Assembly (NCBI GenBank): GCA_005503065.1
Contig: SCOE01000003.1
Location: 1-64,000 of the forward strand
Source of the DNA: Comamonadaceae bacterium ALPHA2B
GTDB lineage: Bacteria > Pseudomonadota > Gammaproteobacteria > Burkholderiales > Burkholderiaceae_C
Reading direction: 5' to 3'
DNA length: 64,000 bases
This document shows positions 40,339-49,049 of this stretch, in pieces; position 1 is the first letter of the stretch; every line of letters begins with the position of its first letter. The translations under genes were made by a program, and so were the position numbers. The notes below the pieces were generated by a model. That model worked only from the letters and a program-made list of their open reading frames with translations. It ran no database searches and had not been told where the DNA came from.

Positions 40339-40797
40339 ATGACGACCGCCACCACGCTGCCCGCGGCCCCTGCCGCGCAAGACCAAGGAACCGCCTTCAC
40401 GCGCGACGACGCCGGCAAGCTCGTGCTGCGCCTGTCGGTGGGACTGCTGGTGCTGCTGCACGGCATCTTCAAGCTGGACACTGGCCCGGGCTTCGTCATC
40501 AAGATGCTCGGAGCCGCGGGGCTGCCCGGCGCGCTGGGCTACCTCGTCTACGTGGGCGAGATCGTGGCGCCGGTGCTGATGATCATCGGCCTGTGGACGC
40601 GCGCCGCGGCCGGCGTCGTCGTCATCAACATGCTCTTCGCGTTCGGCCTGGTCCACATGGGCCAGCTGTTCGCGATGACCGGCCAGGGCGGCTGGGCCCT
40701 GGAGCTGCAGGGCCTGTACCTCTTCGGCGCCCTTGCCATCGCCCTGCTGGGCGCAGGCCGCATCGGCATCGGCGGCGCGCAGGGCCGCTTCAACTGA
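40339..40797 (+). CDS. DoxX family membrane protein
   Basis: A 152-residue protein with four hydrophobic helices and the DoxX core LRLSVGLLVLLHGIFKL, LVYVGEIVAPVLMIIGLWTRAAAGVVVINML and GWALELQGLYLFGALAIALLGAGR. DoxX proteins are redox-linked membrane proteins of poorly known role. Its stop overlaps the convergent Crp/Fnr gene by eight bases. Confidence 0.9.
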   Translation: MTTATTLPAAPAAQDQGTAFTRDDAGKLVLRLSVGLLVLLHGIFKLDTGPGFVIKMLGAAGLPGALGYLVYVGEIVAPVLMIIGLWTRAAAGVVVINMLFAFGLVHMGQLFAMTGQGGWALELQGLYLFGALAIALLGAGRIGIGGAQGRFN

Positions 40798-41527
40798 GCG
40801 GGCCGCCCGAGGCCGTTGGCGCGCTCTCGCCGCGCACCTCGGCCACCATGCGGGCGAGCCGGTCGACATCGACGACCACGAGCGCGCCGGCCTCCTTTCG
40901 CAGGAGCCCGGCGCGTGCCAGCGCATTCAGCTCGCGCGTGACCTGCTCGCGGTTGGTGCTGATCTGGCCGGCCAGGTCCACATGGCGCGGCGCGGGCGCC
41001 AGGCGCGCGGCATTGCCCGATGTGCCTGCCGCGCGCGCCATGCGCAGCAGCTCGGCGTGCAGCCGGTTCTGCACGCCGAGCGTGCTCAGGTCGATGACGC
41101 GCTCGGACAGCTGGCGCACCAGCTGCGCCAGCCGCTGCATGACGCGCAGCGCCAGCTCGGGCACCTCGCGCAGCAGTGCGAGGAAGGTGGCCCGATCGAG
41201 CACGGCGACCACGCTGTCCTCGAGCGTGACGACGTCCGCCGAGCGCGGCTGGCCGTCGATCGCCGCGATGTCGCCCACCAGCTCGCCGGCCGCGGTGTCG
41301 CGGAAGGTCACCTGCCGGCCGTTGGCCGCGTAGGTGGTGACCCGCACGCGACCGTCCACCAGGAAGAAAACCTCCCCACGGTCCTGTGCGCGCAGCAGCA
41401 GGGGCTGATCCGCCGGAATCCGGTGCCATGCGCAGGCCTGGGCGATGCGATCCAGGCGCGCGTCGTCCAGGCCTTCGAGCAGGGCGATGCGACGCAGGGC
41501 AAGGCTGGAGCGGACGGGGGCGTTCAT
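40790..41527 (-). CDS. Crp/Fnr family transcriptional regulator
   Basis: A 245-residue regulator with an N-terminal cyclic-nucleotide-binding domain and a C-terminal winged helix (LAGQISTNREQVTRELNALARAGLLRKE). The phosphate-binding cassette GELVGDIAAIDGQPRSADVVTLED keeps the Gly-Glu and Arg-Ser positions that bind cAMP, and no Fnr cysteine cluster is seen. It diverges by 36 bases from an adenylate cyclase fusion, so it is the likely receptor of that enzyme's product. Convergent and overlapping with DoxX. Confidence 0.92.
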   Translation of the reverse strand: MNAPVRSSLALRRIALLEGLDDARLDRIAQACAWHRIPADQPLLLRAQDRGEVFFLVDGRVRVTTYAANGRQVTFRDTAAGELVGDIAAIDGQPRSADVVTLEDSVVAVLDRATFLALLREVPELALRVMQRLAQLVRQLSERVIDLSTLGVQNRLHAELLRMARAAGTSGNAARLAPAPRHVDLAGQISTNREQVTRELNALARAGLLRKEAGALVVVDVDRLARMVAEVRGESAPTASGGPLS

Positions 41528-41563
41528 GGGGGGTGATCGGCGGCGGATTATGCTCGGCGGCAC

Positions 41564-43222
41564 ATGATTGCAGGCCCACGTCCACGCCCGTCCGCATGGC
41601 CTTCGCGCCGCGACCTGCGATGGGGCAGCGGACTGGTGCTGATGGCCTATGTGGGCCTGCACCTGCTGAACCATGCCATGGGACTGGTGTCGCTCGCGGC
41701 CGCCGAGGCGGTGCTGGCGGTGGCCCGCGCCGTCTGGCACAGCCTGCCGGGCACGGTGCTGCTGTATGGCGCGGCGTCGGTGCACATCGGCATGGCCGTG
41801 GCCGCACTGTGGGAGCGCCGCACCCTGCGCATGCCCTGTATCGAGGCGGTCCGCCTGGTACTGGGGCTCTCGCTGCCGCTGCTGCTGGCATCGCACCTGA
41901 CGGCGATGCGCTGGGCGCACGAGGCCTACGGCATCGACGGCTCCTACCTGCGCGTGGTGGGCGGGCTGTGGGACACGCCCGGCGCAGTCTTCCAGCTCTC
42001 GATGATGACGGCGGCCTGGACCCATGGCTGCCTGGGGCTGCACCTGGCCCTGCGGTCGCGCGCGCCGTGGCGCCGCGCCGCGCCAGCGCTGTTTGCGCTC
42101 GCGCTGCTGCTGCCGCTCTCGGCCGCTGCGGGCTTCATGGCCATGGGGCGCGAGATCGCCCGGATGGCGGCGCCCGCCGCGCCGCCGCATGGGCACTGGG
42201 AAGCACTCGATGCCGCCGCGGAGCGCGCGCGCTGGGCCTACGCCGCGGCACTCGCGGCCTTGCTGCTCGCCCGCACCGCCCGCGGCCTGGCCGGCCGGCT
42301 GGCGGGCACACCGATGCTCACCTTCCGCTACCCGGGCCGCGCGGTGCCCGTGCCGCGCGGCTGGTCGGTGCTGGAGGCCAGCCGCGCGCACCGCATCGCG
42401 CACCTGTCCGTCTGCGGCGGACGTGCACGCTGCTCCACCTGCCGCGTGCGCGTGCGCGCGGCCCCGGGGACCCTGCCCGCACCCTCGGCCGAGGAAGCCC
42501 GCACGCTCGCGCGCGTCCATGCGCCTGCGGATGTGCGGCTGGCCTGCCAGTTGCGCCCGCACGCCGACATCGACGTGCTGCCGCTGTTTGCGCCGCCGTC
42601 GACCCTGCCTCCGCGGCGCTTCGGCACGGAACGCGAAGTGGCCGTCCTGTTCGTCGACCTGCGGCGCTGGTCGGGCCTTGCCGAGCGGCAATGGCCGTTC
42701 GACCTCGTGTATGTGCTGGACCGGTATTTCTCGCTGGTGGGCGAGGCCGTGCGGGCGAGCGGCGGCGTGCCCAACCAGTTCATCGGCGACAGCGTGATGG
42801 CGATCTTCGGCCTGGAAAGCGGCCTGCCTGCGGCCTGCCGCGCCGCCATCGACGCCGCCCTGCGCATCGACGCCGAACTGAGCGCCTGGGGCGACGGGTT
42901 CGCCTCCGAGTTCGGACAGCAACTGGACTTCGGCATGGGCCTGCACGCAGGGCGCGCGGCCGTGGGCGAGGTGGGTTATCTCGACACGACCACCCTCACT
43001 GCCGTGGGCGAAGTGGTGAACACCGCGAGCCGGCTGCAGGACCACAGCAAGGTCGCGGGCGCGCGGCTGGTGCTTTCGGAGTTCGCCGCCACGCAGGCGG
43101 GCCTCGCCCTGGAGGGCCAGCCCCGGGTAGACCTGGCCATCCGCGGCCGCACGCGGCCATTGAAGGTCTGCACGCTCGGTGCCGACGCACTGGCCGGTTT
43201 GCGGCCGGCGCCAGCCGCCTGA
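41564..43222 (+). CDS. Membrane/ferredoxin/class III adenylate cyclase fusion
   Basis: A 552-residue three-part protein. Residues 18-240 hold about six helices with recurrent His (His33, 37, 74, 111, 154, 160), reminiscent of diheme succinate-dehydrogenase-type cytochrome b anchors. Residues 250-345 form a [2Fe-2S] ferredoxin domain with Cys284, Cys290, Cys293 and Cys328 (Cx5Cx2C...C). Residues 355-545 form a class III nucleotide cyclase with metal Asp residues in VLFVDLRRWSGL (Asp365) and FIGDSVMAIFG (Asp409). The layout implies cyclase activity controlled by quinone or redox state. The divergent Crp/Fnr gene is the obvious partner. Confidence 0.88.
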   Translation: MIAGPRPRPSAWPSRRDLRWGSGLVLMAYVGLHLLNHAMGLVSLAAAEAVLAVARAVWHSLPGTVLLYGAASVHIGMAVAALWERRTLRMPCIEAVRLVLGLSLPLLLASHLTAMRWAHEAYGIDGSYLRVVGGLWDTPGAVFQLSMMTAAWTHGCLGLHLALRSRAPWRRAAPALFALALLLPLSAAAGFMAMGREIARMAAPAAPPHGHWEALDAAAERARWAYAAALAALLLARTARGLAGRLAGTPMLTFRYPGRAVPVPRGWSVLEASRAHRIAHLSVCGGRARCSTCRVRVRAAPGTLPAPSAEEARTLARVHAPADVRLACQLRPHADIDVLPLFAPPSTLPPRRFGTEREVAVLFVDLRRWSGLAERQWPFDLVYVLDRYFSLVGEAVRASGGVPNQFIGDSVMAIFGLESGLPAACRAAIDAALRIDAELSAWGDGFASEFGQQLDFGMGLHAGRAAVGEVGYLDTTTLTAVGEVVNTASRLQDHSKVAGARLVLSEFAATQAGLALEGQPRVDLAIRGRTRPLKVCTLGADALAGLRPAPAA

Positions 43223-43228
43223 AGGGAA

Positions 43229-46225
43229 TCAGCCCGGGCTGACCAGCTCGACGTCGAGCTCGCGTTCCAGTTCGTCGATGTCCAGCGGACGGCCGAACAG
43301 GTAGCCCTGGAACAGGCGGCAGCCGTGGCGCTCCAGGAAGGCCAGCTGTTCGGGCGTCTCGACGCCTTCGGCCACCACCTCGAGGTCGAGGCTGCGCGCC
43401 ATGCCGATGATGGTCTGGATCAGCAGTTCGAGCTTGGGGCTGCTGCCGATGCCGCCGACGAAGAACTTGTCGATCTTGACCTGGTGCAGCGGCAGCTGCG
43501 CCATGTACGACAGCGACGAGTAGCCGGTGCCGAAGTCGTCCATCGCGAAGCGGACGCCGATGGCGGCCAGGGACTTCATCTTGCGGATGGTCTCCTCGAC
43601 CTTGTCCTGCAGCAGGCTTTCGGTCAGCTCGATCTTCAGCCGCGAGGGGTCGGCGCCGGTGCGGATGAAGACCTCGCGCACCTGGTCGGCGAAGTCCTCG
43701 CGCTGGAACTGTCGCGCGCTGACGTTGACGGCCAGCTGCAGGTGCCGGCGACGCGGATGGTGGCTCCACTGCTCCAGCTGCCGGCAGGCCTGCTCGAGCA
43801 CCCAGATGCCGATGGGCACGATGAGGCCGGTGCCCTCGGCGACGTCGATGAAGGCGGCCGGGGGAATCAGGCCGCGGTGCGGATGGCGCCAGCGGATCAG
43901 CACCTCGGCGCCGGTGATCTCGCCGGCGGCCGCAACCTGGCGCTGGTAGTGCAGCGTGAACTGGTGGCCCTTGAGGGCGGCGTGCAGCTCGTTCTCGAGC
44001 GTGGCGCGCGCGGTGATGGTGGTCTGCATCGGCGCCTCGAAGAAGCGCAGCCCGTTGCCGCCCGCCTGCTTGGCGTGGAACATGGCGATATCGGCCTGCT
44101 TGAGCAGCTCGTCCAGCGACTGCGATCGGTCGCCGAAGACCGTCGCGCCGATGCTGGTGGTGCCATGGTAGGTGTAGCTGCCCAGCTGGTAGGGCCGTCC
44201 CAGGTCGGCCAGCACACCTTCGCCGAAGGCCTGCGTCTGCACGGCCGCGCGGACCGGGTCGATGCCGAGGTTGTCGACCAGGATCACGAACTCGTCGCCA
44301 CCCAGCCGCGCCACCGTGTCACCCACGCCGAGCAGGGCGCGCAGCCGGTCGGCCACCTGCCGCAGCAGCACGTCGCCCATGGCCTGGCCCTGCGCGTCGT
44401 TGAGCGTCTTGAAGTGGTCCAGGTCAAGGAACAGCAAGGCCCCCTGCCGCCCGCGGTGCGCGTTGTTCTCGACCACGGCCTGCAACCGGTGCAGCAGCAG
44501 CCGCCGGTTGGGCAGGCCCGTGAGCGTGTCGTAGAAGGCGAGGTGCTCGATCTCCTGGGCAGCGGCCTTGTGCTCGGTGATGTCGCGCAGCATGACGATG
44601 AAGCGCGCGTCCTGACCCTCGCCCACGTCCATCCGCGAAACCGAGAGTTCGAACCACGCCGTGCCGTGCTCGGCGCGGCGCTCGATCTGCTGGCCGGCCG
44701 ACAGGCCCTGCTGGTAGGCCTCGCGCAGCGCGTTCATGATCTGGCTCGCCGCGTCGGGTGCGAACAGGTCCGCCAGCGTGCGTCCAACGGGGTCGCCTGG
44801 AAACGGGGCCGTGACCGAGGCCGTGCGCGGCGGGTGGTAGCGGTGGCAGCGGCCGTCCAGGCCCACCTCCAGCATCGCGTCGGGGACCGCGTCGAGCGTG
44901 GCCTGGAGCTGGGCCCGGCCTTCCACCACCTCGGCGATCTGCCGCAGCCGCTCCGTGACGTCGCGGAACACGCCGACCTGCCCACCGTCGGGCGTGGGGC
45001 TGCGCATGGCCAGGATGCGCCGGCCATCCTCGAGGCGAAGCTCGTACTCGCCGTCCCCCAGCCCCACGGCGCCGGCATTCGCGCGCGCGGGATCGGCGCC
45101 GGGCAGCTGGAACGTCGCCGCACTGCCGACGAACGGCTCGATGCCCGGGAACAGGTCCAGGAGCCGCTGGTTCCACACCTGGGCCCGGCCCTCGGCATCG
45201 AGCAGGACGAAGCCGTCGCTCATCGCGTCGAGCGCCTGGTCGAGCGTGGCCTTCGATCGCTGCAGGCTCGCGCGGTGCGCCCACTGCCGGCGCAACTGGT
45301 GAAGCGCGAAGGCCGCCACCGCCAGCACCATCAGCACCAGCACGACGGCCACGCCGATGATGAAGTCGCGCTGAACCTCCCAGTCGGCCAGCGCCACATC
45401 CAGCGGGATGCCGGCCACCACCAGCAGGTTGCGGTGCAGCGTGGGCCGGTACACCACCACGGCCGGCACGCCGGTCAGCCGCGAGGTCATGAATTTCGGA
45501 TGCCCGTCGGCCTCGCGTTCGTTCAGCGGTTGCCGCGCCGCCCGCACGGACGGATCGTCCCGCGGCGGCATGCTGGCAAGCACGGCGCCGCCGCTGCGCT
45601 CCAGCGTCACCTCCAGCCCGGCGATGTCGGCGCCCTGGGTGAGGATGGTGGTGAAGGTGGAAACGGGCACCTCGGCCACCGCCACCAGCCGCGTGCCGTC
45701 CTGCAGGTCCAGGGCGCGTGCCAGGTAGAGCACGCGCTGGCTGCTCACGGGGCTCACGCGCGGATCGCTCACCTGCAGGCTCGACACCGGCTGGGCCAGG
45801 ACTTCGCGCACGAAGCCTTCGGGCAGCTCCAGCGGGGTCGCCATGCCTTGCGCCGTCGCGGGCGCAAGGATGCGGCCATCGGCCTGCACCAGAGCGAACT
45901 GCCGCACCAGCAGGCTCTCGCGCGCCATTTCGCGCATGACCGAGTTGACGCGGCTGCGCGTCGCCTCACCCCGCACCTGCTCCGCAGTGCTGTCGGCGAG
46001 GACGGCGCCCAGGCTGGCCAGCAGGACGTCGGCGCCCACCAGGCTGCGGTTGATCGCGGCCTCGGCGCCACTGGCGAAGCGTGAGGCCTGGCCCTCGGTG
46101 TCCGCCAGGGCACTCTCGCGCATCTGCCAGAGCATCGCCGCAGCCGCCACGACCACGGCGACCACGAGCGCGGCCGCGCCACCGTACAAGGCCGCGCTGA
46201 CACGCAGGGGCAGCTTTCGCCTCAT
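43229..46225 (-). CDS. Membrane-anchored sensor diguanylate cyclase/phosphodiesterase (PAS-GGDEF-EAL)
   Basis: A 998-residue c-di-GMP enzyme. A transmembrane helix (about 10-33), a periplasmic Cache-like sensor (40-280) and a second helix (288-308) precede two PAS-type domains (about 325-430 and 440-560). A GGDEF domain follows with intact GGDEF at 642-646, then an EAL domain in which the signature reads EVL (774-776), with DDFGTGYSSL further on. Both activities look possible. ATG 46225 is preferred over a GTG eight codons earlier. It begins four bases after a DctP-like receptor gene, suggesting ligand input through that protein. Confidence 0.92.
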   Translation of the reverse strand: MRRKLPLRVSAALYGGAAALVVAVVVAAAAMLWQMRESALADTEGQASRFASGAEAAINRSLVGADVLLASLGAVLADSTAEQVRGEATRSRVNSVMREMARESLLVRQFALVQADGRILAPATAQGMATPLELPEGFVREVLAQPVSSLQVSDPRVSPVSSQRVLYLARALDLQDGTRLVAVAEVPVSTFTTILTQGADIAGLEVTLERSGGAVLASMPPRDDPSVRAARQPLNEREADGHPKFMTSRLTGVPAVVVYRPTLHRNLLVVAGIPLDVALADWEVQRDFIIGVAVVLVLMVLAVAAFALHQLRRQWAHRASLQRSKATLDQALDAMSDGFVLLDAEGRAQVWNQRLLDLFPGIEPFVGSAATFQLPGADPARANAGAVGLGDGEYELRLEDGRRILAMRSPTPDGGQVGVFRDVTERLRQIAEVVEGRAQLQATLDAVPDAMLEVGLDGRCHRYHPPRTASVTAPFPGDPVGRTLADLFAPDAASQIMNALREAYQQGLSAGQQIERRAEHGTAWFELSVSRMDVGEGQDARFIVMLRDITEHKAAAQEIEHLAFYDTLTGLPNRRLLLHRLQAVVENNAHRGRQGALLFLDLDHFKTLNDAQGQAMGDVLLRQVADRLRALLGVGDTVARLGGDEFVILVDNLGIDPVRAAVQTQAFGEGVLADLGRPYQLGSYTYHGTTSIGATVFGDRSQSLDELLKQADIAMFHAKQAGGNGLRFFEAPMQTTITARATLENELHAALKGHQFTLHYQRQVAAAGEITGAEVLIRWRHPHRGLIPPAAFIDVAEGTGLIVPIGIWVLEQACRQLEQWSHHPRRRHLQLAVNVSARQFQREDFADQVREVFIRTGADPSRLKIELTESLLQDKVEETIRKMKSLAAIGVRFAMDDFGTGYSSLSYMAQLPLHQVKIDKFFVGGIGSSPKLELLIQTIIGMARSLDLEVVAEGVETPEQLAFLERHGCRLFQGYLFGRPLDIDELERELDVELVSPG

Positions 46226-46229
46226 GGGA

Positions 46230-47315
46230 TTATTCGGGTCCCTGGGCACGCACGCCGGCCTGTGCGGCCAGCGTGCTGTTCCACAGCGTGACGCAGTTGG
46301 CGCCGCATCGCTTCATCCACGCAGGCACCACACGGCGCGCGAAGATCTCGCGACGGCGTGCCTCGTCCTCCGCCGTGGGTCGGCTTGCGACCATGCTGCC
46401 CTTGCGGGGCCGGTCGCAGCCGTCGGTGCCGGTGCTGCAGGCCACGCCGACGTCGGTCTCGCGGGCCGATTCGGCCCATACGGCAGCTTCCAGCCTGGGC
46501 ATTTGCGCCTCGATCAGTTCCTGAAGCGCCGGGGGATAGGAGTTCCAGCTCTGCTCGTTCACCACCGCCAGCGCCAGGCCCCACGAGATCGGCATGGTGA
46601 AGAGCGAACGCGTCACCCTGTCCAGCCCGAGCGTGTGCCCCGACATCGAACCGGTCACCGCGCACTCCGCATTGCCGGCCTGCACATTGGCCACGATGTC
46701 GGCAAATTCGGTGAACACAGGCGTCGCCTTCAGCGCCTGCACGAAGTCGGCCTGGCTCATGCCGGAGACCCGCACACGCCGGCCCGCCAGGTCGGCCAGG
46801 TGGGCGATGGGTCGTTGGCAGAACAGCATCTGCGCCGGATAGATGTAGACGGCCAGCAGGCGTGCACCGAAACGCTCATGCAGGATCTGCGCCATCGATG
46901 GCCGCAGGGCTTGCAGCGTCCTGCGCAATGTCGCGACGTCGGGGTTCTGGCCCGCCATGTCGACCATGCCGAGGTCGGGATCCTCCACCGCAGCCTGGCT
47001 CAGCAGCACGGTGCCGATGGGGATCACACCAAGGCGCACGAGATTGAGCATGTCCTGCGCCGCCAGGCCCGCCTCGTTGAAAGGGACGATGCTGGCGCTG
47101 TAGCGTCCGCCGCTGAGCCGGGCGAGGTCCTCGGCCCAGAAGCGCCGCTCGTGCCGGGTGTACTGGCTGATGCCCGCCAGTCCGCCCACCACCCGCAGGC
47201 GCACCTCCGGTGCCGCCGATGCCGACCACGCCGGGCCGCCGACCAGCAGCAGCGGCAGGCACAGGGCCACGGTCCGCGCAAGCGGCCGGACGAGTCTGCG
47301 CAAGGTCTGGATCAT
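46230..47315 (-). CDS. DctP-like TRAP family solute-binding protein coupled to a c-di-GMP enzyme
   Basis: A 361-residue periplasmic receptor with a long basic signal peptide (cleavage near residue 33). The DctP family core is seen in FWAEDLARLSGGRYSASIVPFNEAG, IGTVLLSQAAVEDPDLGMVDMAG, LADLAGRRVRVSGMSQADFVQALKATPV and FADIVANVQAGNAECAVTG. Extra cysteines occur near the C-terminus (CSTGTDGC and CGANC). No DctQ or DctM gene is near; the next gene, four bases on, is the Cache-PAS-GGDEF-EAL protein, so a sensory rather than transport role is likely. Confidence 0.88.
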   Translation of the reverse strand: MIQTLRRLVRPLARTVALCLPLLLVGGPAWSASAAPEVRLRVVGGLAGISQYTRHERRFWAEDLARLSGGRYSASIVPFNEAGLAAQDMLNLVRLGVIPIGTVLLSQAAVEDPDLGMVDMAGQNPDVATLRRTLQALRPSMAQILHERFGARLLAVYIYPAQMLFCQRPIAHLADLAGRRVRVSGMSQADFVQALKATPVFTEFADIVANVQAGNAECAVTGSMSGHTLGLDRVTRSLFTMPISWGLALAVVNEQSWNSYPPALQELIEAQMPRLEAAVWAESARETDVGVACSTGTDGCDRPRKGSMVASRPTAEDEARRREIFARRVVPAWMKRCGANCVTLWNSTLAAQAGVRAQGPE

Positions 47316-47519: not shown

Positions 47520-49049
47520 ATGACCGGCCGCAGGCCGGCAAGCCGCGCGGCGAAGAAAACGCGTCCGCGATGCCCGTACGCTTCCGCCATGCCGCCCTCC
47601 GACGACCACAGCTCCATGTTCGACCTCGCGCCCGTTTCGCTGTGGCTCGAGGACTGGAGCGGACTGAAGGCCCTGTTCGATCGCTGGCGCGCCGAGGGCG
47701 TGGCCGACATCCGTGCCCACCTGGAGGCCGACCCCGACCGCGTCGCGCAGTGCATGGCCCAGCTCAAGGTGGTGCAGGTCAACCGCCAGACGCTGCGGCT
47801 GCTGGGTGCGGCGAGCCAGGAAGAGCTGGTCCAGCGGCTCGGCGAGGTGTTCCGGGACGAAATGGCCGAGCCGGTGCTGTACGAACTCACCCAGCTGTGG
47901 CAAGGCAACCTGGACTTCGACAACCAGTCGGTCAACTACTCGCTCGACGGCCGGCGCCTGGACGTGCACGTTCGCATCCGCGTGCTGCCCGGGCACGAGG
48001 CGCGCTGGGACCGCGTGCTCGTCTCGCTGGACGACATCTCCGAGCGCGTGCGGGCCGAGGCCGCACGCGACGCCAACGCCAGCTATGCGCGCGGACTCTT
48101 CGAGCGCTCGCCCGTGTCGCTCTGGGTGGAGGACTTCAGCGCCATCAAGCAGTTGCTGACCGGCGTGCGTGCGCAGGGCATCCAGGACTTCGGCACCTTC
48201 CTCAAGGTACACCCTGAATTCGTGAACCGATGCATGCAGGAGATCCGCGTGCTGGACGTGAACGAGGAGACGCTGCGGATGTTCGGCGCCACCGACAAGC
48301 AGCACCTCCTGCGCAACCTGCCGCACATCTTCCGCGACGAGATGGAGGATTCCTTCGCCGAACAGCTGCGCGACCTGTGGGACGGCAAGACACTGCAGCA
48401 GCGCGAAGTCCTCAACTACAGCCTGGGCGGCGAGCCGATCCACATCTACATGCAGTTCGCGGTGCTGCAGGACCACCTCGAGGAGTGGGACCTGGTGCTG
48501 GTGTCCCTGGTCGACATCACGGCGCGCAAGCGGGCCGAGGCCTACCTGGAGTACCTGGGCACGCACGACGTGCTGACCCAGCTGCGCAACCGCACCTATT
48601 ACTCCGAAGAGATCAAGCGCCTTGCGCGCAAGGGCCCGTGGCCGGTGTCGGTGCTGGCCATCGACATGAACGGGCTGAAGCGGGTGAACGACGAAGTCGG
48701 CCATGCGGCCGGTGACGCGCTGCTGCGCCGTGCCGGCGAGGTGCTTTCGAAGGTGGTCGACGCCCCGGCGTGCGCGGCCCGCGTGGGCGGGGACGAATTC
48801 GCCGTGCTGCTGCCCGGCACCGAGGAGCGCGGCGCCGCCGCGGTGCGCGAGCGCCTGCAGTCGCTGCTCGACATGAACAACCAGTTCTACGTCGGCACCA
48901 GCGGGCACCACCTGAGTTTCGCCGTCGGTGCGGCCACCTGCCTCGCCGGCGAATCGCTCGAGGCCGCACTGCAGCGTGCCGACCGTGCCATGTACGTGGA
49001 CAAGGCGCGGCACTACGACCTGCCCGCCCACTCCCGCGGGGCCTCATGA
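47520..49049 (+). CDS. Tandem-PAS diguanylate cyclase
   Basis: A 509-residue soluble protein with two related PAS-like sensor domains (about residues 36-178 and 196-338). They are offset by 160 residues: PVSLWLEDW/PVSLWVEDF and NYSLDG/NYSLGG recur at matching positions. A GGDEF domain follows with intact RVGGDEF (GGDEF at 423-427). The protein looks competent to make c-di-GMP. The start at ATG 47520 has GGGGAG only two bases away; ATG 47589 or 47616 is possible. The stop overlaps the next start in ATGA, coupling it to an EAL protein. Divergent from the DctP-like gene. Confidence 0.88.
   Translation: MTGRRPASRAAKKTRPRCPYASAMPPSDDHSSMFDLAPVSLWLEDWSGLKALFDRWRAEGVADIRAHLEADPDRVAQCMAQLKVVQVNRQTLRLLGAASQEELVQRLGEVFRDEMAEPVLYELTQLWQGNLDFDNQSVNYSLDGRRLDVHVRIRVLPGHEARWDRVLVSLDDISERVRAEAARDANASYARGLFERSPVSLWVEDFSAIKQLLTGVRAQGIQDFGTFLKVHPEFVNRCMQEIRVLDVNEETLRMFGATDKQHLLRNLPHIFRDEMEDSFAEQLRDLWDGKTLQQREVLNYSLGGEPIHIYMQFAVLQDHLEEWDLVLVSLVDITARKRAEAYLEYLGTHDVLTQLRNRTYYSEEIKRLARKGPWPVSVLAIDMNGLKRVNDEVGHAAGDALLRRAGEVLSKVVDAPACAARVGGDEFAVLLPGTEERGAAAVRERLQSLLDMNNQFYVGTSGHHLSFAVGAATCLAGESLEAALQRADRAMYVDKARHYDLPAHSRGAS

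What the first reader, a model, noticed from the sequence alone, without database searches (positions are those of the whole stretch)
40790..43222. Redox-gated adenylate cyclase divergent from its likely Crp/Fnr receptor
One protein joins a His-rich cytochrome-b-like membrane part, a plant-type [2Fe-2S] ferredoxin and a class III cyclase. A Crp/Fnr regulator with a preserved cyclic-nucleotide cassette is transcribed divergently 36 bases away. This is a compact system that could turn quinone or electron-transport state into cAMP signalling.
Basis: partly seen in the sequence, partly recalled or inferred. Interest (0 to 1): 0.7.

Follow-up and report, generated by a model that had tools for sequence, protein, structure and literature searches.

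The report
Redox-sensing cyclase with Crp-family partner
The window holds a membrane enzyme that probably senses the state of the respiratory chain through heme and an iron-sulfur cluster and makes a cyclic nucleotide; it belongs to a family already characterised in a nitrogen-fixing bacterium, but this branch differs at one substrate-binding residue and usually sits beside its own regulator gene.

Summary
Window 41564-43222 (+) encodes one 552-aa protein: a six-helix membrane domain with four invariant His, a four-Cys [2Fe-2S] domain and a class III cyclase domain. A Crp/Fnr gene (40790-41527, -) diverges 36 nt away. The kind is already known: CyaC of Sinorhizobium meliloti is published as a diheme-B, quinone-responsive adenylate cyclase, and a ferredoxin-cyclase cluster was described in 2016. 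Two details of this Burkholderiales branch appeared in none of my paper-search listings. (1) The substrate Lys (K410 of CyaC) is Gln (Q405), with the other catalytic residues kept; 101 of 123 sampled rows have Q, 17 have K. (2) A divergent Crp gene is present in 71 of 74 deduplicated Burkholderiales rows, and was not found beside five beta-proteobacterial members with decayed cyclase sites. This suggests, without proving, that it reads the product. Two reader claims need softening: the ferredoxin has adrenodoxin-like, not plant-type, Cys spacing; and the regulator's ligand pocket is only partly canonical (G85, R95, S96 kept; E86 is D; T140 is L). Heme, cluster, redox gating, product and ligand are inferred; none was measured here.

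The parts
41564..43222 (+). CyaC-type membrane-bound nucleotide cyclase, 552 aa
41564..42298 (+). six-helix membrane domain (aa 1-245), cytochrome-b-like; AlphaFold2 model of aa 1-247 pLDDT 93.7
41660..41662 (+). H33, predicted heme ligand, invariant in the 50-sequence alignment
41783..41785 (+). H74, predicted heme ligand, invariant in the 50-sequence alignment
41894..41896 (+). H111, predicted heme ligand, invariant in the 50-sequence alignment
42023..42025 (+). H154, predicted heme ligand, invariant in the 50-sequence alignment
42338..42559 (+). [2Fe-2S] ferredoxin domain (aa 259-332), Cys 284, 290, 293, 328 (CX5CX2CX34C)
42632..43051 (+). class III cyclase core matched by Pfam (aa 357-496); D365, D409, T479, N486, R490 kept
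42776..42778 (+). Q405, at the place of the substrate-specifying Lys (K410 of S. meliloti CyaC)
41528..41563 (.). 36-nt divergent intergenic region
41547..41555 (.). ATTATGCTC, conserved core between the two genes; possibly overlapping -10 elements for both directions (inference)
40790..41527 (-). Crp/Fnr-family regulator, 245 aa, candidate receptor of the cyclase product
41168..41398 (-). cNMP-binding domain (aa 44-120); G85, D86, R95, S96
40847..41065 (-). HTH_Crp_2 DNA-binding domain (aa 155-227); R193-E194-x3-R198

Best explanation
This is the Burkholderiales form of CyaC. The six-helix domain binds two heme b through H33, H74, H111 and H154 and exchanges electrons with the ubiquinone pool. 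The redox state is passed through the [2Fe-2S] domain to the dimeric class III cyclase, switching cyclic-nucleotide synthesis (probably cAMP). The divergently encoded Crp-family regulator binds that product and controls target genes, plausibly including the shared promoter. Shown here: the architecture, the conserved ligand and catalytic residues, the conserved gene pairing, and the lack of that neighbour beside five decayed cyclases. Inferred by homology: heme, cluster, quinone input, redox gating. Inferred from context only: that the Crp reads this cyclase's product, and what it regulates.
For: Domains. Four His invariant in 50 aligned sequences; four Cys kept in 123 of 123 rows. Q405-T479 spacing is 74, as K410-T484 of CyaC, and N486/R490 are spaced as N491/R495. 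CyaC is reported as diheme-B, quinone-responsive and interacting with a Crp-like regulator. Best PDB fold match of the membrane domain is W. succinogenes FrdC 1e7p_C (prob 0.98, TM 0.52); D. gigas QFR C is rank 16 (prob 0.77). The cyclase fold matches class III cyclases. dN/dS of the cyclase domain is 0.14 and 0.10 against the two nearest relatives. A divergent Crp is present in 71 of 74 deduplicated Burkholderiales rows. In 250 family genomes 13 have both genes, in all 13 within 0.5 kb on divergent strands; 8 have only the cyclase-like protein, 7 only the Crp, 222 neither, Fisher p 7e-12. Five decayed cyclases have no such Crp in the 1.4-3.7 kb held upstream. Best PDB sequence match of the Crp is 7pza, the cAMP/cGMP receptor Clr of S. 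meliloti.
Against: The substrate Lys is Gln; CyaC with the double change K410A/T484A showed very low background activity. The Crp pocket has D for E86 in 73 of 86 rows and L for T140 in 85 of 86, one gap. Foldseek E for the membrane domain is weak (0.36). Pfam Sdh_cyt hits 4 of 49 members, best E 0.0089, while an unrelated DUF998 hits one member at 3.4e-5; the only PDB profile hit has E 0.77. dN/dS of the cyclase domain is higher, 0.26-0.41, against three more distant relatives. Intact cyclases without a nearby Crp exist: L108, L164, L165, and loci outside the Burkholderiales block, Gln-type ones included. The five decayed rows lie in one clade, so they are about one evolutionary event.
Confidence: 0.65

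Rival explanations
1. The Gln branch is not a strict adenylate cyclase: with Gln in place of Lys it makes cGMP, both cAMP and cGMP, or another cyclic nucleotide, and the neighbouring Crp has a matched pocket.
For: All 85 loci with the divergent Crp have Gln at this place and none has Lys; 100 of 101 Gln rows read N-Q and 17 of 17 Lys rows read D-K. Guanylate cyclases have Glu instead of Lys there. The Crp pocket is altered too (D86, L140). The nearest solved relative, Clr, responds to both cAMP and cGMP.
Against: Thr479 is kept as in CyaC, which is reported to make cAMP. Twelve Gln rows outside the Burkholderiales block have no such Crp neighbour, so the two traits are not strictly linked. An N-Q motif is also present in another cyclase of this genome, so Gln alone is no sign of an unusual product. 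Nothing was measured.
Confidence: 0.2
2. The Crp-family gene is a local regulator of the cyclase gene that answers to some other ligand, and the cyclase product is read elsewhere, for instance by one of the other cNMP-binding proteins of this genome.
For: This genome has 13 cNMP-binding matches including P0003. The pocket of P0003 departs from Clr at E86 and T140. In S. meliloti the genes beside cyaC are a TetR regulator and a LysR regulator, and the partner Clr has a distant locus number. Members of this Crp group occur without the cyclase in 7 of 250 family genomes.
Against: R95 and S96 are kept in 86 of 86 rows. The Crp neighbour was not found beside five cyclases with decayed active sites, which a mere regulator of the gene would not predict.
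Confidence: 0.2
3. The heme/Fe-S part has a further function of its own, and the cyclase domain is a secondary or dispensable output.
For: Nine homologues with altered cyclase sites keep all four Cys and, where the sequence is complete, all four His (L019, L134, L138, L161-L163, L050, L060, L061), and three homologues of the membrane domain alone keep the four His (L166-L168).
Against: In the window and its two nearest relatives the cyclase domain is under purifying selection, and all catalytic residues but the Lys are kept.
Confidence: 0.07

Closest known systems
CyaC (SMc01818) of Sinorhizobium meliloti
   Same: Six-helix diheme-B-type membrane domain, [2Fe-2S] domain, class III cyclase domain, catalytic residue spacing; a Crp-like regulator in the pathway.
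   Different: Gln instead of the substrate Lys; neighbour gene is a divergent Crp-family regulator instead of TetR CycR and a LysR gene. CyaC itself was not aligned here; only its published residue numbers were used.
Ferredoxin-associated class IIIb cyclase cluster 1 (R. palustris Q132R4), eLife 2016, PMC4821796
   Same: Same domain order; four spaced membrane His predicted to hold two hemes; 30 sequences from alpha- and beta-proteobacteria.
   Different: In the passages seen it is a sequence cluster without a tested function, and the Lys position and gene neighbours are not discussed.
S. meliloti Clr (7PZA/7PZB), cAMP and cGMP receptor
   Same: Best PDB sequence match of P0003 over its length (E 1.9e-19); G85, R95, S96 kept.
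   Different: E86 is D, T140 is L, T141 is S; P0003 keeps R-E-x3-R as in E. coli CAP, where Clr lacks the Glu.
Wolinella succinogenes fumarate reductase subunit C (1e7p_C)
   Same: Best fold match of the membrane domain; a diheme cytochrome b (heme content recalled).
   Different: Anchor of an enzyme complex, with no ferredoxin or cyclase; weak E-value (0.36).

Membership tests
CyaC-type redox-regulated adenylate cyclase | six-helix membrane domain with tetra-His signature | tested here: met
   H33, H74, H111, H154 invariant in 50 aligned sequences; model helices 15-41, 61-84, 92-122, 139-163 carry them
CyaC-type redox-regulated adenylate cyclase | binuclear Fe-S domain between membrane and cyclase | tested here: met
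   Fer2 E 7.7e-7; four Cys in 123 of 123 rows; the cluster itself was not measured
CyaC-type redox-regulated adenylate cyclase | catalytic Thr, Asn, Arg and two metal Asp | tested here: met
   T479, N486, R490, D365, D409
CyaC-type redox-regulated adenylate cyclase | substrate-specifying Lys (K410) | tested here: not met
   Q405; so filed as a variant, not as a canonical CyaC
CyaC-type redox-regulated adenylate cyclase | two heme b bound | not testable with these tools
   needs spectra
CyaC-type redox-regulated adenylate cyclase | cyclase activity responds to quinone redox state | not testable with these tools
   needs assay
CyaC-type redox-regulated adenylate cyclase | TetR regulator CycR next to the gene (S. 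meliloti context, not a defining feature) | tested here: not met
   Crp gene instead
Succinate/fumarate:quinone oxidoreductase cytochrome b fold | fold or sequence similarity to diheme FrdC/SdhC | tested here: inconclusive
   prob 0.98, TM 0.52, E 0.36; Pfam Sdh_cyt 4 of 49, best E 0.0089; SdhC 6lum_C E 0.77
Crp-Fnr regulators that bind cyclic nucleotides | cNMP domain plus Crp-type HTH | tested here: met
Crp-Fnr regulators that bind cyclic nucleotides | phosphate/sugar contacts G85, E86, R95, S96 (Clr numbering) | tested here: inconclusive
   G85, R95, S96 in 86 of 86; position 86 is D in 73, E in 8, V or L in 5
Crp-Fnr regulators that bind cyclic nucleotides | base contacts T140, T141 on the dimer helix | tested here: not met
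   position 140 is L in 85 of 86 (one gap); position 141 is S or T in 85 of 86
Plant-type [2Fe-2S] ferredoxin | CX4CX2C spacing (recalled) | tested here: not met
   CX5CX2CX34C; PDB hits include adrenodoxin homologue, putidaredoxin, NqrF

The most novel reading that the evidence does not exclude
The Burkholderiales branch is a private redox signalling channel. A Gln-type cyclase, gated by the quinone pool, makes a cyclic nucleotide with relaxed or changed base preference, and a co-inherited Crp-family receptor with a reshaped pocket (Asp86, Leu140) reads it, insulated from the cell's other cAMP circuits. Side branches lost the cyclase chemistry but kept every heme and Fe-S ligand, and in one distant group such a dead cyclase sits beside a stand-alone cNMP-binding protein.
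Probability: 0.15. Interest if true: 0.7.

Novelty: new variant of a known kind. Interest (0 to 1): 0.42.

Why it matters
CyaC showed that an adenylate cyclase membrane anchor can be a receptor that reads the respiratory quinones. This branch adds a candidate dedicated receptor gene next door in most sampled Burkholderiales genomes that have an intact cyclase of this kind (13 of 15), which would make the whole path from quinone to gene expression testable in one two-gene cassette. It also offers a natural experiment on the substrate-binding Lys, and on what the heme and Fe-S parts do when the cyclase site decays.

Tried and rejected
Categorically new redox cyclase: rejected, since CyaC and the 2016 ferredoxin cluster are in print. 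Plant-type ferredoxin: rejected on Cys spacing. Chance gene neighbourhood: rejected on conservation. Sigma-70 promoter scan of 41400-41700: 0 sites; the conserved ATTATGCTC (54 of 71 distinct upstream stretches; TTATGCT in 58 of 71, in 0 of 70 control stretches, and in a mean of 0.18 of 71 shuffled stretches) is therefore only suggestive. No Crp palindrome stood out by eye in the part of the intergenic alignment that I printed. A single origin of Gln could not be fixed: the tree (membrane plus Fer2 parts, quick method, long branches) needs 6 changes for Q, at least 2 forced by well-supported branches. Strict tie of the Crp to intact cyclases, or of the Crp to Gln: not claimed, since L108, L164 and L165 are intact without it and 12 Gln rows outside the Burkholderiales block lack it. 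L143 scored as decayed, but its motif residues T, N, R continue in another reading frame, so I counted it as frameshifted. The Rv0386 Gln comparison is recalled, and my look-ups did not confirm it. Predicted base preference from sequence: not attempted.
Full report
What is there. The window lies in a genome whose near relatives include Xenophilus (L067, X. aerolatus DSM 19424, 90% identical; L066, a MAG, 92%). ORF 41564-43222 (+) gives 552 aa; ORF 40790-41527 (-) gives 245 aa; the gap is 41528-41563, 36 nt. Pfam finds Fer2 and Guanylate_cyc in the first and cNMP_binding plus HTH_Crp_2 in the second. Flanking genes are DoxX, TauE, SDR, FAA hydrolase and GST on one side, and a GGDEF-EAL protein, a DctP solute-binding protein and a GGDEF protein on the other; none obviously belongs to the pair.

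The sample. Family rows: 14 full-length matches (L006-L019, out of 60 relatives' genomes), 29 of the 44 other full-length matches (398 genomes of the phylum; the 15 weakest of these, and 10 genomes that match by the ferredoxin part alone, were not taken), and the best 80 of 277 relatives. That makes 123 rows, not deduplicated and weighted towards Burkholderiales; L020-L035, which match by the cyclase domain alone, were left out.

Membrane domain. In 50 aligned sequences the only invariant His of this part are H33, H74, H111 and H154; H37 is nearly invariant. In the 123 rows the four are kept wherever a letter is present, save one R at H74 in L125, a truncated row. AlphaFold2 gives the whole protein pLDDT 89.8, pTM 0.65, and the first 247 residues pLDDT 93.7, pTM 0.87. 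Foldseek of the latter against the PDB gives subunit C of W. succinogenes fumarate reductase first (prob 0.98, TM 0.52, E 0.36) and the D. gigas homologue at rank 16 (prob 0.77, TM 0.50); no match reaches E 0.001. By sequence the support is thin: Pfam Sdh_cyt in 4 of 49 members, best E 0.0089, next to a DUF998 hit in one member at 3.4e-5, and one PDB hit, SdhC 6lum_C, at E 0.77. The published statement that such anchors resemble succinate dehydrogenase/fumarate reductase cytochromes and the biochemistry of CyaC carry more weight.

Ferredoxin domain. C284, C290, C293 and C328 are kept in 123 of 123 rows. The spacing CX5CX2CX34C and PDB hits such as adrenodoxin homologue, ferredoxin VI, putidaredoxin and NqrF point to the adrenodoxin-like kind, not the plant kind (type spacings recalled).

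Cyclase domain. It matches class III cyclases in sequence and fold (first is S. platensis CyaC 1wc1, a different protein with the same name). D365, D409, T479, N486 and R490 are present. The substrate Lys is Q405. The spacing Q405-T479 is 74 residues, that of K410-T484 in S. meliloti CyaC, so the place is right. Of 123 rows, 101 have Q, 17 K, 5 other; 100 of the 101 read N-Q and 17 of 17 read D-K. dN/dS of the cyclase domain is 0.14 and 0.10 against L007 and L008, and 0.26, 0.41 and 0.41 against the more distant L009, L011 and L017, below 1 throughout. Another cyclase of this genome, on contig C35, also has an N-Q motif, so Gln as such is not rare.

The Crp neighbour. phmmer with P0003 finds a strong divergent homologue (E under 1e-30) beside 85 of the 123 loci; the only other hit is a weak one on the same strand in L061. 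L125, L136 and L138 hold too little upstream sequence to tell. All 85 have Gln at 405; of the 16 Gln rows without it, 12 lie outside the Burkholderiales block. In the deduplicated Burkholderiales rows (76 rows; L125 and L138 dropped for short upstream sequence; a row with short upstream was kept if a Crp was seen, as L110), 70 are intact with Crp, 1 intact without (L108), 1 decayed with Crp (L143, on inspection a frameshift) and 2 decayed without (L019, L134): 71 of 74 have the Crp. Further genomes added L161, L162 and L163, decayed and without Crp, and L164 and L165, intact and without Crp, with at least 3 kb upstream held. Moving L143 to intact gives 71 intact with Crp, 3 intact without, 0 decayed with, 5 decayed without (Fisher p 2.5e-6; 3e-7 without L164 and L165). 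The decayed rows lie in one clade of six together with L138, so this is about one evolutionary event and the p-values overstate it. In 250 genomes of the family, 21 match the membrane/ferredoxin model (E 1e-40 or better) and 20 have a Crp of this group (E 1e-50 or better). Thirteen have both, in all 13 within 0.5 kb on divergent strands by position. Eight have only the cyclase-like protein (3 decayed, 3 with the membrane domain alone, 2 intact) and 7 only the Crp (Fisher p 7e-12; genomes are related, so this is descriptive). No such Crp was found in the 1.4-3 kb held upstream of the loci outside the Burkholderiales block.

What the decayed members keep. L019, L134, L161, L162, L163, L050, L060 and L061 keep all four His and all four Cys; L138, truncated, keeps three His and the four Cys. 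L166, L167 and L168 match by the membrane domain alone and keep the four His. So the redox parts are under constraint without the cyclase chemistry in some lineages.

The Crp pocket. By the alignment P0003 shares numbering with Clr around the pocket. Clr contacts are G85, E86, R95, S96, T140 and T141. P0003 has G85, D86, R95, S96, L140, S141. In 86 rows (P0003 counted twice, as window and L006, and some genomes twice) G85, R95 and S96 are in all; position 86 is D in 73, E in 8, V or L in 5; position 140 is L in 85 with one gap. The HTH keeps R193 and R198 in 85 and E194 in 84 of 86, the pattern of E. coli CAP R180, E181, R185 given. So it looks like a cyclic-nucleotide receptor with a non-standard base pocket; the ligand cannot be told from sequence. 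This genome has 13 cNMP-binding matches, of which P0003 is the only one in its group at E 1e-50.

Intergenic region. ATTATGCTC is present in 54 of 71 distinct upstream stretches; TTATGCT is in 58 of 71 and in 0 of 70 control stretches. It could be overlapping -10 elements for the two directions; the consensus scan called no promoter.

How it most likely works. Quinone redox state, sensed by two heme b, passes through the [2Fe-2S] domain to the cyclase dimer; the product acts on the divergent Crp. For S. [quoted passage not shown] A direct complex between this cyclase and P0003 is therefore worth testing, but nothing here shows it.

Papers. Klein et al. 2023 (PMC10463352): parts 1 to 4 of 5 read. 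Beltz et al. 2016 (PMC4821796): start of abstract and passages. Clr structure paper (PMC10127613): start of abstract and passages. Ma1120 paper (PMC4215837): abstract in part and passages. PMC2447327: start of abstract only; the look-up found no passage. Wissig et al. 2019 is not held and is known here through Klein et al. and recall. Searches for this Burkholderiales pairing: searches gave 0 papers; the listed titles (20 of 96; 12 of 209; 3 of 3) show none on it. Subscription journals are mostly not held, so this is no proof of absence from print.

Noticed in passing
L019, L134, L138, L161, L162, L163: A beta-proteobacterial clade has lost cyclase active-site residues but keeps the four Cys and, where complete, the four membrane His; the five members with upstream sequence have no Crp neighbour.
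   Followed up: partly
L050, L060, L061 (upstream of the cyclase-like gene): Three homologues from other unnamed families of the phylum, with altered cyclase sites, follow, on the same strand, a 287-311 aa protein without Pfam hit and a 140-159 aa stand-alone cNMP-binding protein.
   Followed up: partly
L166, L167, L168: Matches to the membrane domain alone, without ferredoxin or cyclase nearby, that keep the four His; in L167 a 290-aa ORF.
   Followed up: partly
L004 (G000 contig C35): A second cyclase of the same genome, with an N-Q motif, lies just downstream of a 218-aa Crp-like gene on the same strand.
   Followed up: no
window 43229-46249 and 47520-49049: A PAS-GGDEF-EAL protein converges on the cyclase gene and a PAS-GGDEF protein lies further on, so c-di-GMP genes lie near the cyclase.
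   Followed up: no
L143: Ramlibacter montanisoli copy: the cyclase frame breaks inside the domain although its Crp neighbour is kept.
   Followed up: partly
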